From positions 14,231 through 20,268 of the forward strand of contig PXRQ01000079.1 in the NCBI GenBank assembly GCA_003022005.1: a stretch of 6,038 bases of DNA, written 5' to 3'. Source of the stretch: Halobacteriales archaeon QS_5_70_15 (GTDB taxonomy: Archaea > Halobacteriota > Halobacteria > Halobacteriales > Haloarculaceae). Position 1 is the stretch's first letter. Every line of letters starts with the position of its first letter. A model generated the notes under the pieces. The model was not told the origin of the DNA. It was given only the letters and a program-made list of their open reading frames with translations, and did no database searches. The position numbers were made by a program, and so were the translations under genes. Of the stretch, positions 762 through 6,038 are shown piece by piece.

Positions 762-2078
762 ATGCCACAGGACGTCACAGCTGACGGGAACGGAACGGTC
801 GCCCTCGCCTTCTCCGGGGGGCTCGACACGACGGTCTGCGTCCCGATACTCGAGGAGGAGTACGGCTACGACGAGGTCATCGGCGTTACGGTCGACGTCG
901 GCCAGCCCGAGGCGGAGTTCGCGGAGGCCGAGGAGACGGCCGAGGCGCTCGGGCTCGAACACTACGTCGTCGACGCCAAGGCGGAGTTCGCGGCGCTCTG
1001 CATGGACGGCATCCGCGCGAACGCCACGTATCAGGGCTACCCGCTCGGGACCGCGCTCGCGCGGCCGGTCATCGCGTCGGCCATCCTGGAGGTGGCCGAG
1101 GAGCACGGCTGCACGGCCCTCGCCCACGGCTGTACGGGCAAGGGCAACGACCAGCTCCGGTTCGAGGCCGTCTGGCGCGACTCGGACATGGAGGTCATCG
1201 CCCCGGTCCGGGAGATGGGGCTGACCCGCGAGTGGGAGAAGGCGTACGCCGCCGAGCGGGACCTGCCCGTGGAGGGCGGCAACGAGGGCGACTGGTCGAT
1301 CGACACGAACCTCTGGAGCCGCTCGGTCGAGGGGAAGGAGCTCGAGGAGCCGTCCTACGTCCCCGGCGAGGAGATCTACGAGTGGACGACCGCGCCGACG
1401 GGCGAGACGCTCGAACTCGAGATCGGCTTCGAGGACGGCTACCCCGTCTCGCTCGACACCGTCGGGGAAACCCCGACGAGCCCTCGGCTCCCAGCCGAGG
1501 ACGGCGAGGCGGTCTCGCCGGTCGAACTCGTCGAGACGCTGAACGAGACCGCCGGCGCGTACGGCGTCGGCCGGACCGACGTCATGGAGGACCGGATGCT
1601 CGGGCTGAAGGTCCGCGAGAACTACGAACACCCGGCCGCGACGGTTCTGCTCTCCGCCCACCAGGGCCTCGAGTCGCTCGTCCTCACGAAGGAGGAGCGG
1701 CAGTTCAAGACCTACGTCGACCAGGAGTGGGCCGAGAAGGGCTACGAGGGGCTCGTGAACGCCCCGCTCGTCCGCGCGCTCGAGGGGTTCATCGACGGGA
1801 CCCAGGAGCGGGTGACGGGTACGGTGACGATCCGCCTCGAGGGCGGGCAGGCCCGCGTCGTCGGGCGCGAGTCGCCGTACGCCGTCTACTCCGCCGATGC
1901 CGCCTCGTTCAACACCGAGGACGTGATGGACGGCATCGAACAGGCGGACGCGACGGGCGTCGCGAAGTACCACGGCTTCCAGGAGCGCCTGGCGAACACG
2001 ATGTTCGACGCGGCGAAAGCGCGCGAATCCGCCCAGGCCGCCACGGACGGCGGCACCGACGACACAGGGGACGAGTGA
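762..2078 (+). CDS. argG: Argininosuccinate synthase
   Basis: ArgG condenses citrulline and aspartate with ATP cleavage to give argininosuccinate, the penultimate step of cytosolic arginine synthesis. The N-terminal nucleotide-binding domain has the PP-loop AFSGGLDTTV (residues 16-25), VTVDVGQPE (42-50), YPLGTALARP (93-102) and GCTGKGNDQLRFE (123-135). The synthetase domain includes EGGNEGDWSIDTNLWSRS (171-188), GRTDVMEDRMLGLKVRENYE and a C-terminal helical part from about 383. The ATG at 762 is the only sensible start, because the PP-loop is at residue 16 and the next Met is at residue 81. The 438 residues are somewhat long for the short-type family: there is an acidic tail (about 427-438) and a 15-residue insertion, T233-D247, encoded by a double-hairpin segment. 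argH follows after 1 nt, so the two are cotranscribed and probably translationally coupled. Confidence 0.97.
   Translation: MPQDVTADGNGTVALAFSGGLDTTVCVPILEEEYGYDEVIGVTVDVGQPEAEFAEAEETAEALGLEHYVVDAKAEFAALCMDGIRANATYQGYPLGTALARPVIASAILEVAEEHGCTALAHGCTGKGNDQLRFEAVWRDSDMEVIAPVREMGLTREWEKAYAAERDLPVEGGNEGDWSIDTNLWSRSVEGKELEEPSYVPGEEIYEWTTAPTGETLELEIGFEDGYPVSLDTVGETPTSPRLPAEDGEAVSPVELVETLNETAGAYGVGRTDVMEDRMLGLKVRENYEHPAATVLLSAHQGLESLVLTKEERQFKTYVDQEWAEKGYEGLVNAPLVRALEGFIDGTQERVTGTVTIRLEGGQARVVGRESPYAVYSADAASFNTEDVMDGIEQADATGVAKYHGFQERLANTMFDAAKARESAQAATDGGTDDTGDE
1458..1502. mobile_element. In-frame double-hairpin palindromic insertion inside argG (candidate)
   Basis: Two perfect 19-nt hairpins lie side by side: CGTCGGGGAAACCCCGACG (1460-1478) and CCTCGGCTCCCAGCCGAGG (1482-1500). 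Each has an 8-bp stem and a 3-nt loop, and they are separated by AGC. A GAC triplet precedes the segment (1455-1457) and ends it (1500-1502), like a short target duplication. Removing 45 nt joins LD to GEAVSPVELVE, matching the turn seen in ordinary ArgG as I remember it (PVALNGE/PVAVDGE followed by the P-x-ELIE helix). The segment encodes TVGETPTSPRLPAED and the palindromic core has no stop in any of six frames. The tri-nucleotide-loop hairpins resemble REP/IS200-IS605-type palindromes moved by Y1 transposases, and in-frame Rickettsia palindromic elements, but that kinship is inference. It carries no gene itself. Confidence 0.55.
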
Positions 2079-4018: not shown

Positions 4019-4878
4019 ACGTCGGGGTCCTCTACTCGCGCATCCGGCGGGACGAGAAGCTCCTCCTGTCCGAACTGCGCGAGCGCGGCCACGAGGTGAC
4101 GAAGATCGACGTCCGCAAGGAGCGGTTCGGCGTCCATGAACCGCCGGTGTCGTTCGAGGGATGTGACCTCGTGCTGGACCGGTGTCTCGCGACGTCGCGC
4201 TCGCGGTACATCACGCGGTTCGTCGACCGCTACGGGATCCCGGTGGTGAACGACCCGGAGACCGCCGAGGTCTGCGCGGACAAGGCGCGCAACAGCCTCG
4301 TCCTCTCGGAAGCCGGGGTTCCGACGCCGAACACCGAGGTGGCGTTCACCAAGGAGTCCGCGCTCGAGTCGATCGAGGGGTTCGGCTACCCGTGTGTCCT
4401 GAAGCCGGTCGTCGGCTCCTGGGGGCGGCTGATGGCGAAGATCGACTCCCGGGACGCCGCCGAAGCGATACTGGAACACAAGGAGACGCTCGGGCACTAC
4501 GAGCACAAGGTGTTCTACATCCAGGAGTTCGTCGAGAAGCCCGGCCGGGACATCCGCGTGGTCGCCACCGACGGCGAGCCGGTCGCGGCGATGGCCCGCT
4601 CCTCGGAGCACTGGCTCACCAACGCCGCGCAGGGCGCGGAGGTCGAGCCCCTCGAGGTGACCGACGAGATGCGCGACCTCGTCGAGCGCGCGAGCGACGC
4701 CGTCGGCGGCGGCCTCCTCGGCGTGGACCTGATGGAGACCGGCGACGACTACACCGTCCACGAGGTGAACCACACGGTCGAGTTCAAGGCGCTCGACTCG
4801 GTGACCGACGTGGACGTCCCCGCTGCGGTCGTCGACTGGCTGGAGGCCACGGTACAGACGCCCGAGGTGACGGCCTGA
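4015..4878 (+). CDS. argX: Glutamate--LysW ligase ArgX (LysX/RimK-type ATP-grasp)
   Basis: ArgX uses ATP to link the alpha-amino group of glutamate to the C-terminal Glu of LysW, the committed first step of carrier-dependent ornithine synthesis. The 287 residues match the LysX/ArgX size. Visible are the N-terminal MNVGVLYSRIRRDEK, the ATP-grasp segment LKPVVGSWGRLMAKI with Lys130 and the G-S-W-G-R loop (134-138), QEFVEKPGRDIRVV, and EVNHTVEFK (250-258), where Glu250 and Asn252 are expected metal ligands. The frame is open further upstream, but the start at 4015 gives the family N-terminus, and upstream ATGs would overlap lysW. LysX (aminoadipate) and ArgX (glutamate) are close relatives; ArgX is chosen from the context of argG, argH and argC and because haloarchaea use the diaminopimelate lysine route. 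argC follows after 1 nt. Confidence 0.93.
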   Translation: MNVGVLYSRIRRDEKLLLSELRERGHEVTKIDVRKERFGVHEPPVSFEGCDLVLDRCLATSRSRYITRFVDRYGIPVVNDPETAEVCADKARNSLVLSEAGVPTPNTEVAFTKESALESIEGFGYPCVLKPVVGSWGRLMAKIDSRDAAEAILEHKETLGHYEHKVFYIQEFVEKPGRDIRVVATDGEPVAAMARSSEHWLTNAAQGAEVEPLEVTDEMRDLVERASDAVGGGLLGVDLMETGDDYTVHEVNHTVEFKALDSVTDVDVPAAVVDWLEATVQTPEVTA

Positions 4879-5926: not shown

Positions 5927-6038
5927 ATGAGTTCGGAGACGACGCCTTTCGATACACCGACCGTGACGACGTTTTCAGGAACACCTCGGAAGCCCCTTCA
6001 CGAGTCGGCGCAGGGAACACCTCGGAAGCCCCCGGGCG
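5927..6038 (+). CDS. Possible start of a repeat-containing ORF (3' end outside window)
   Basis: An ATG at 5927 is preceded by AGGTGA (5913-5918) at 8 nt spacing and the frame stays open to the window edge: MSSETTPFDTPTVTTFSG, then two copies of GTPRKP 12 residues apart. It does not resemble ArgB, which begins with a VVKIGG-type kinase motif. Several A/T-ending codons (AGT, CCT, ACA, CTT, TTT) differ from the neighbours, so the region is more likely non-coding DNA carrying a repeat, with argB starting further right. Confidence 0.2.
   Translation, partial: MSSETTPFDTPTVTTFSGTPRKPLHESAQGTPRKPPG
5978..6032. repeat. Two copies of a 19-nt repeat with 36-nt period
   Basis: GGAACACCTCGGAAGCCCC occurs exactly at 5978-5996 and 6014-6032, each preceded by CAG or AG and separated by 17 nt. 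More copies may follow beyond the window. The period is a multiple of three, and all frames stay open through it (readings include NTSEAP and, on the other strand, GASEVF). I recall such peptides scattered through haloarchaeal hypothetical proteins, which would make this a dispersed DNA repeat, but I cannot verify that here. It lies where argB would normally follow argC. Confidence 0.7.

What the first reader, a model, noticed from the sequence alone, without database searches (positions are those of the whole stretch)
1458..1502. In-frame double-hairpin insertion within the argG coding sequence
Two perfect 8-bp stems with 3-nt loops fill 1460-1500, three bases apart, inside a conserved enzyme gene. 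The 45-nt segment is bounded by GAC on the left (1455-1457) and GAC at its right end (1500-1502). Deleting it gives LDGEAVSPVELVE, the form expected at this beta-turn of ArgG, so the protein appears to have gained 15 residues (T233-D247) at a surface turn where they are tolerated. The core has no stop in any of six frames. This looks like a protein-tolerated palindromic mobile element, analogous to Rickettsia palindromic elements, possibly mobilised in trans by a Y1 (IS200/IS605-type) transposase. The mobility and the transposase link are inference.
Basis: partly seen in the sequence, partly recalled or inferred. Interest (0 to 1): 0.8.

Follow-up and report, generated by a model that had tools for sequence, protein, structure and literature searches.

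The report
Mobile double-hairpin insert in haloarchaeal proteins
The 45-letter insert in this enzyme gene is one copy of a tiny, scattered DNA element, made of two hairpins, that sits in the reading frame of many genes of salt-loving archaea and adds about 15 amino acids to loops of everyday enzymes.

Summary
The 45-nt unit 1458-1502 holds two perfect 8-bp hairpins after a GAC; 99 of the 120 nearest ArgG proteins lack an insert there. A covariance model built from six ArgG inserts, then widened, matches 287 of 391 haloarchaeal genomes, up to 44 matches in one. In two genomes scanned more deeply, of 80 places 67 lie in one sense frame, 5 antisense on the same codon grid, 8 uncertain or noncoding. 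Hosts include ValRS, PurA, Mre11, HisC, TrxR, histidine kinases. Hairpin pairing is kept through many double changes. Filled and empty sites exist between loci 91-98% identical, and tandem arrays step by 45 nt. The Rickettsia-like reading holds as an analogy. The Y1-transposase link does not: five copy-rich genomes have no Y1 match even at E<=10, and Y1 is as common in genomes without copies as in copy-rich ones. What moves the element is unknown. I found no report of it in the library searched. New variant of protein-coding palindromic elements.

The parts
762..2078 (+). argG (argininosuccinate synthase, 438 aa), host gene
   Evidence: ORF; homologues; PDB relatives
1458..1502 (+). 45-nt palindromic element (codons T233-D247), element strand = coding strand
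   Evidence: absent from P0003-P0008 at 88-92% identity; model match 1456-1503, 70.9 bits with R1 and 67.3 with R2; the window copy is one of the sequences both models were built from
1455..1457 (+). GAC triplet (Asp codon) after which the unit lies
   Evidence: triplet at this place is GAC in 57 and AAC in 20 of 100 copies
1460..1478 (+). hairpin 1: CGTCGGGG-AAA-CCCCGACG
   Evidence: I10; helix 1 in A5: 95.7% of cells paired, 7 of 8 pairs with double changes
1479..1481 (+). spacer AGC
   Evidence: AGC in 54 and GGC in 31 of 100 copies
1482..1500 (+). hairpin 2: CCTCGGCT-CCC-AGCCGAGG
   Evidence: I7; helix 2 in A5: 89.7% of cells paired, 8 of 8 pairs with double changes
1500..1502 (+). 3' terminal GAC of the unit
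   Evidence: 3' end GACG in 60, AACG in 15 and GACA in 10 of 100 copies

Best explanation
The insert is one copy of a very small, non-autonomous mobile DNA element widespread in the class Halobacteria. Its layout is RAC - hairpin 1 (about GNCGAGC-RAA-GCTCGNC) - GAGC/GGGC - hairpin 2 (about CGGAC-NNN-GTCCG) - GAC; the unit is mostly 45 nt, sometimes 48-54. It lies after an RAC triplet. Its length is a multiple of three and one strand reads as a Ser/Thr/Glu/Arg-rich hydrophilic peptide, so copies landing after an in-frame Asp/Asn codon in a loop are tolerated and translated, while copies in other frames are mostly removed by selection (inference). Because each copy brings its own terminal GAC, units can stack in tandem (inference). 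Also inferred: both hairpins are the recognition signal, read as single-stranded DNA by an unidentified factor acting in trans, and copies can be lost cleanly by slippage between the flanking GAC triplets. Shown: dispersal, in-frame placement, filled/empty polymorphism between relatives, hairpin covariation and tandem arrays. Not shown: the enzyme, the strand used, and mobility in the laboratory.
For: Dispersal: R2 matches in 287 of 391 genomes at E<=0.001, 15 candidates scored per genome with stricter filters; 44, 38, 24 and 24 matches at E<=0.01 in four genomes with 150 candidates each. Frame: 67 of 80 places in one sense frame, 5 antisense on the same grid, 8 without positive coding score (its script failed later, after printing these counts). 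Empty/filled pairs: lysX of Haloferax denitrificans L071 filled (+48 nt), L074, L075, L079 empty, L071/L074 flanks 97.9 and 98.2% identical; lysX of Natrialba L070 filled (+45) against L067 and L076, and argH of L076 filled (+48) against L070, nearby flanks 91-93% identical; TnpB 3' region, exactly 45 nt between AAC and GAC against the empty L316; ArgG L232 empty at 94% identity to filled P0101. Covariation: 344 double-change cells against 90 in shuffles, 0 of 500; pairing 92.7%, at most 40.7% when slid. Tandem 45-nt steps, e.g. G284:C1:2367187/2367232/2367277. Near-identical copies in different genes of one genome: L145 with L209 and with L214, 94% each. ArgG insert patchy: at least 25 changes on a tree of 226 rows.
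Against: No transposase or other factor was found. In one search, 104 of 391 genomes have no match. The nine ArgG 15-aa copies in A5 are each nearest to another ArgG copy, so part of the ArgG pattern may be old insertion plus repeated loss rather than fresh insertion. Models were built from their own hits, so covariation in A4/A5 is partly selected for; the empty sites are the independent support. Matches near 30 bits include what reads as native gene sequence (L002 and L039; L088, L089, L093, L096, L100, L108, judged by eye), so low-scoring copy counts are inflated. In the Haloferax lysX pair the net gain is 48 nt and the junction triplets changed, so that site does not show the 45-nt rule cleanly. 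The window's own genome is not held.
Confidence: 0.85

Rival explanations
1. A terminal-only IS605-type remnant (PATE-like): two transposon-end hairpins fused together and moved in trans by a Y1 TnpA.
For: PMC3119063 (passages read) describes 52-bp terminal-only PATEs in Haloquadratum with near-terminal palindromes, no target duplication, and strain-specific insertions although nearly all TnpA genes there are pseudogenes. Size, paired palindromes and target-adjacent insertion fit.
Against: No Y1 match in five copy-rich genomes even at E<=10; no association across genomes; no model match above about 20 bits around ten Y1 genes. One copy-rich genome (G290) also has no TnpB match at E<=0.001. G003 is a metagenome-assembled genome and the completeness of the others is not told, so absence is not absolute.
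Confidence: 0.2
2. A functional peptide motif spread or kept by selection on the protein; the DNA palindromes are a by-product.
For: The peptide is uniform in character: over 100 copies Ser 26%, Thr 11%, Glu 10%, few hydrophobic residues.
Against: Pairing is kept while the residues change; copies also occur antisense, in apparently noncoding DNA and downstream of TnpB; ArgG orthologues 92-95% identical over shared columns lack it.
Confidence: 0.05
3. In argG itself: one old insertion per flavour followed by many precise losses, rather than many separate gains.
For: Nearest neighbour of each of the nine 15-aa ArgG copies in A5 is another ArgG copy; three flavours (15, 17, 18 aa) each recur in parts of the tree.
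Against: Residues flanking the insert in P0001 match its insert-free sisters P0004 and P0005; the window copy is almost as close to a non-ArgG copy (L107, 0.81) as to its best ArgG match (L111, 0.85). Tree counts cannot tell gain from loss.
Confidence: 0.4
4. Chance palindromes in GC-rich coding DNA.
For: Haloarchaeal genomes give thousands of first-look candidates, and matches near 30 bits include native sequence.
Against: In 712 kb of arg-cluster DNA only the six ArgG copies pass 50 bits; two GC-rich bacterial plasmids (4.4 Mb, stricter filters; three further records given were not searched) give one match at E<=0.01, 28 bits; filled/empty pairs exist.
Confidence: 0.01

Closest known systems
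Rickettsia palindromic elements (RPE)
   Same: Dispersed palindromic DNA translated in-frame inside unrelated conserved genes; also found in RNA genes (PMC2229807, PMC10969869, passages read).
   Different: RPEs are given there as 105-146 bp or about 150 bp with long stem-loops; this unit is 45 nt with two separate short hairpins and a RAC...GAC frame. No sequence kinship was tested.
Coding palindromic repeats of Wolbachia and of Methanocaldococcus jannaschii
   Same: In-frame palindromic inserts; the second is an archaeal precedent (seen only as cited in PMC2996958 and PMC2229807; originals not read).
   Different: Other lineages; their structure could not be compared here.
PATEs and IS605-type transposons of Haloquadratum and Natronomonas
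   Same: Haloarchaeal, paired near-terminal palindromes, a target oligonucleotide, no target duplication; terminal-only copies of 52 bp (PMC3119063, passages).
   Different: No Y1 association here; copies here lie mostly inside reading frames; sequences not compared.
REP / BIME elements with RAYT transposases
   Same: Short hairpins in pairs, sometimes inside ORFs (PMC3733652, passages).
   Different: REPs are described as predominantly between ORFs and GTAG-REPs as tied to Y1-type RAYTs; neither holds here.

Membership tests
Protein-coding palindromic elements (RPE-like, as a kind) | Repeated palindromic DNA at many places in a genome | tested here: met
   44, 38, 24 and 24 matches in four related genomes; the window's own genome is not held
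Protein-coding palindromic elements (RPE-like, as a kind) | In-frame insertion in conserved genes, orthologues without it | tested here: met
   67 of 80 places in one sense frame; empty sites
Rickettsia palindromic elements sensu stricto | About 105-150 bp with long stem-loop and terminal inverted repeats | tested here: not met
   45-nt unit with two separate hairpins
Rickettsia palindromic elements sensu stricto | Sequence kinship with RPE families | not tested
   no RPE sequence was fetched
IS605-type / PATE | Near-terminal palindromes | tested here: met
   two hairpins fill the unit
IS605-type / PATE | Y1 transposase in the genome or linked to the copies | tested here: not met
   absent from five copy-rich genomes at E<=10; no association
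IS605-type / PATE | Sequence match to known PATE/IS605 ends | not tested
REP/RAYT | Mainly extragenic location | tested here: not met
   72 of 80 places have a positive coding score
MITE | Terminal inverted repeats with target duplication | tested here: inconclusive
   no terminal inverted repeat spanning the unit was seen; GAC...GAC fits either a 3-nt duplication or a unit that ends in GAC

The most novel reading that the evidence does not exclude
A class-wide family of 45-nt mobile elements that spreads through haloarchaeal genomes without Y1/HUH transposase or reverse transcriptase, by a mechanism that reads only a pair of single-stranded hairpins next to RAC. Being in codon register and precisely reversible, it acts as a continuing source of disordered surface loops in core enzymes.
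Probability: 0.35. Interest if true: 0.9.

Novelty: new variant of a known kind. Interest (0 to 1): 0.77.

Why it matters
It suggests that short stretches of many conserved haloarchaeal enzymes come from an invading DNA element rather than from the gene's own history. Such inserts can mislead alignments, trees and claims about halophilic adaptation. It may be the smallest mobile element known to spread inside coding genes across a whole class (size comparison recalled, not searched), and it occurs in the genus Haloferax, which has working genetics, so the long-standing question of how protein-coding palindromes move becomes testable.

Tried and rejected
Y1 transposase in trans: rejected as a general requirement. 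TnpB: R2 hits next to TnpB genes (G140, G284) looked like a parental transposon, but relatives with the same TnpB 3' region lack the unit (L313, L314, L316), so I read it as one more insertion; G290 has copies and no TnpB match. Reverse transcriptase: no match in 7 of 8 copy-rich genomes. Viral carriers: strict pattern 0 contigs, loose pattern 15 contigs, of which I looked at one (L309), which reads by eye as an ordinary phage gene; chance is assumed for the rest, not shown. Chance palindromes and pure protein selection: see rivals. Horizontal swap of argG alleles over long tracts: flanks of P0001 match its sisters. AlphaFold model of ArgG: mean pLDDT only 65.6; residues 236-247 are below 50 and lie between a strand and a helix, so it supports a loop only weakly.

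Rows dropped or limits: 11 of 111 matches of A5 were left out as opposite-strand readings or repeat views of one place; one search counted all 111 (104 distinct). In one search, L245 and L254 were left out as second views of the genomes of L019 and L029; some other rows are still the same protein reached twice (216 of 226 differ). One search was given 100 sources, not all loci held. G003/G245: 82 matches are 80 places. In one search, L290 was given with a stretch that ends inside the insert; its whole insert is seen. The antisense composition printed may be off by a frame and is not used. One search was not repeated for all genomes at a laxer limit, only for five.

Full report
What is there. 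The window is a haloarchaeal argG-argH-lysW-lysX-argC cluster (ORFs; gene names other than argG are recalled from the sequences, not from a search). It folds better than all 200 shuffles as DNA and as RNA.

The insert in ArgG. Of the 120 best ArgG relatives listed, 99 have no insert and 21 carry one at exactly this turn, in three flavours of about 15, 17 and 18 residues (DTVEETSTSS.., DTGEQSSPSN.., DVLGSDAPAS..). With ArgG from fetched loci added, 34 of 228 rows carry one. On a tree of 226 rows with the insert columns left out, presence needs at least 25 changes, of which starred branches force 16; the starred set of eight that holds the window protein has six without and two with (FastTree). 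The two PDB alignments shown lack the residues. The 15- and 18-residue flavours were seen as DNA and share one layout: GAC, hairpin, (G)AGC, hairpin, GACG or a close variant; the 17-residue flavour was seen only as protein.

Dispersed copies. A covariance model from six ArgG inserts (R1) found copies outside argG, above all in genome G003, the MAG Halobacteriales archaeon QS_9_68_17. A second model from 18 copies (R2) matched 287 of 391 genomes of the class at E<=0.001, with 15 candidates scored each. With 150 candidates, four genomes gave 44, 38, 24 and 24 matches at E<=0.01. Controls: in 712 kb of arg-cluster DNA (80 loci and the window) only the six ArgG copies pass 50 bits; two GC-rich bacterial plasmids (4.4 Mb) give one match at E<=0.01, 28 bits, under stricter filters. 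Weak matches around 30 bits do include native sequence.

Reading frame. In the 28 loci read the copy stands in the same sense frame, open and continuous with recognisable protein, in 28 of 28, although several are orthologues of one another (six geranylgeranyl reductases, three aldo/keto reductases, three nitrite reductases, two ArgG). For all 80 places of G003 and G245 a codon score learned on argG and applied to the flanks alone gave 67 in that sense frame, 5 antisense on the same codon grid and 8 without a positive score (listing; a few of the 8 still read as in-frame copies). No other frame was best among the 72 places with a positive score. GAC itself is in frame in 1572 of 2443 occurrences in argG, so site preference explains part and selection must explain the rest; the other two sense frames are 22-25% arginine, which should fit poorly in acidic haloarchaeal proteins (inference). 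Hosts named by family models include phosphoglucosamine mutase-like, adenylosuccinate synthase, Mre11, valine-tRNA ligase, geranylgeranyl reductase, nitrite reductase-like, HisC, thioredoxin reductase-like and acyl-CoA dehydrogenase proteins, two proteins with a histidine-kinase ATPase domain, an aldo/keto reductase and a class I tRNA synthetase of the Glu/Gln type.

Empty sites. LysX of Haloferax denitrificans (L071) carries 48 extra nt that H. sulfurifontis (L074) and two other Haloferax (L075, L079) lack, with flanks of L071 and L074 97.9 and 98.2% identical. Three Natrialba loci differ likewise in lysX (L070 filled) and argH (L076 filled). The same lysX turn holds inserts of five kinds in seven loci: L020, L027, L029, L071, and one kind in L035, L049 and L070, so some loops are hot spots. 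Downstream of a TnpB gene, in the region that should encode its guide RNA (inference), L153, L156, L290, L296 and L317 are filled and L315 has a different insert at the spot, while L313, L314 and L316 are empty. Against L316 the unit is exactly 45 nt between AAC and GAC, the same rule as GAC|45 nt|G in argG; L313 and L314 have GAA and AAA in place of AAC. The triplet at the 5' junction is GAC in 57, AAC in 20, GGC in 12 of 100 copies and the 3' end is GAC in 70. Arrays at 45-nt steps follow if each copy supplies the next target. An antisense copy in L017 (1849-1896) lies in a gene whose relative in L039 has none.

Hairpins under constraint. In A5 (111 matches, 104 distinct) 92.7% of cells pair, against 40.7% at most when the partner is slid, with 344 double-change cells against a shuffled mean of 90; 15 of 16 pairs change on both sides. 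The sequences were chosen by a structure model and a few are opposite-strand readings of one place, so this overstates the case. Whether the constraint acts on DNA during movement or on something in place is not shown.

What moves it. Y1 transposases are not the general answer, TnpB has no match in one copy-rich genome and reverse transcriptase none in seven of eight. I commit to an element recognised as paired single-stranded hairpins by an unidentified trans factor, with loss by slippage across the GAC triplets; this is inference.

Known or new. Library searches and passages of PMC3119063, PMC10969869, PMC3733652, PMC2229807, PMC12306157 and PMC2996958 gave Rickettsia, Wolbachia and M. jannaschii coding palindromes, REPs in ORFs and haloarchaeal PATEs, but no haloarchaeal family like this one. 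No paper was read whole. Most subscription papers are not in that library, so novelty is likely but not certain.

Noticed in passing
window 5978-5996 and 6014-6032: Two identical 19-nt direct repeats GGAACACCTCGGAAGCCCC, start to start 36 nt, downstream of argC at the window's end; a 16-nt core was found in no other fetched locus.
   Followed up: partly
window about 4731-4770 (lysX, METGDDYTVHEVNH): The window's lysX is empty at a turn that carries palindromic inserts of five kinds in seven fetched relatives.
   Followed up: yes
L153 1501-1548, L156 1501-1548, L290, L296: A copy of the element sits downstream of a TnpB gene, in the stretch expected to encode its guide RNA, and is absent or replaced by another insert in relatives.
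   Followed up: partly
L119, L122, L139, L161, L199, L213: Proteins that read as histidine kinases often carry the element, sometimes in tandem, directly at the N-box (NAVEHG), whose own DNA resembles by eye the first half of the element.
   Followed up: no
L027, L029, L076, L315: Inserts of similar two-hairpin size but with unrelated stem sequences at the same or other loops suggest further families that the model R2 does not catch.
   Followed up: no
A5, loops: Loops are mostly 3 nt, often GAA/AAA in hairpin 1 and GCA/GGA in hairpin 2; GNA triloops are recalled as very stable in DNA hairpins, which would hint at a DNA-level role.
   Followed up: no
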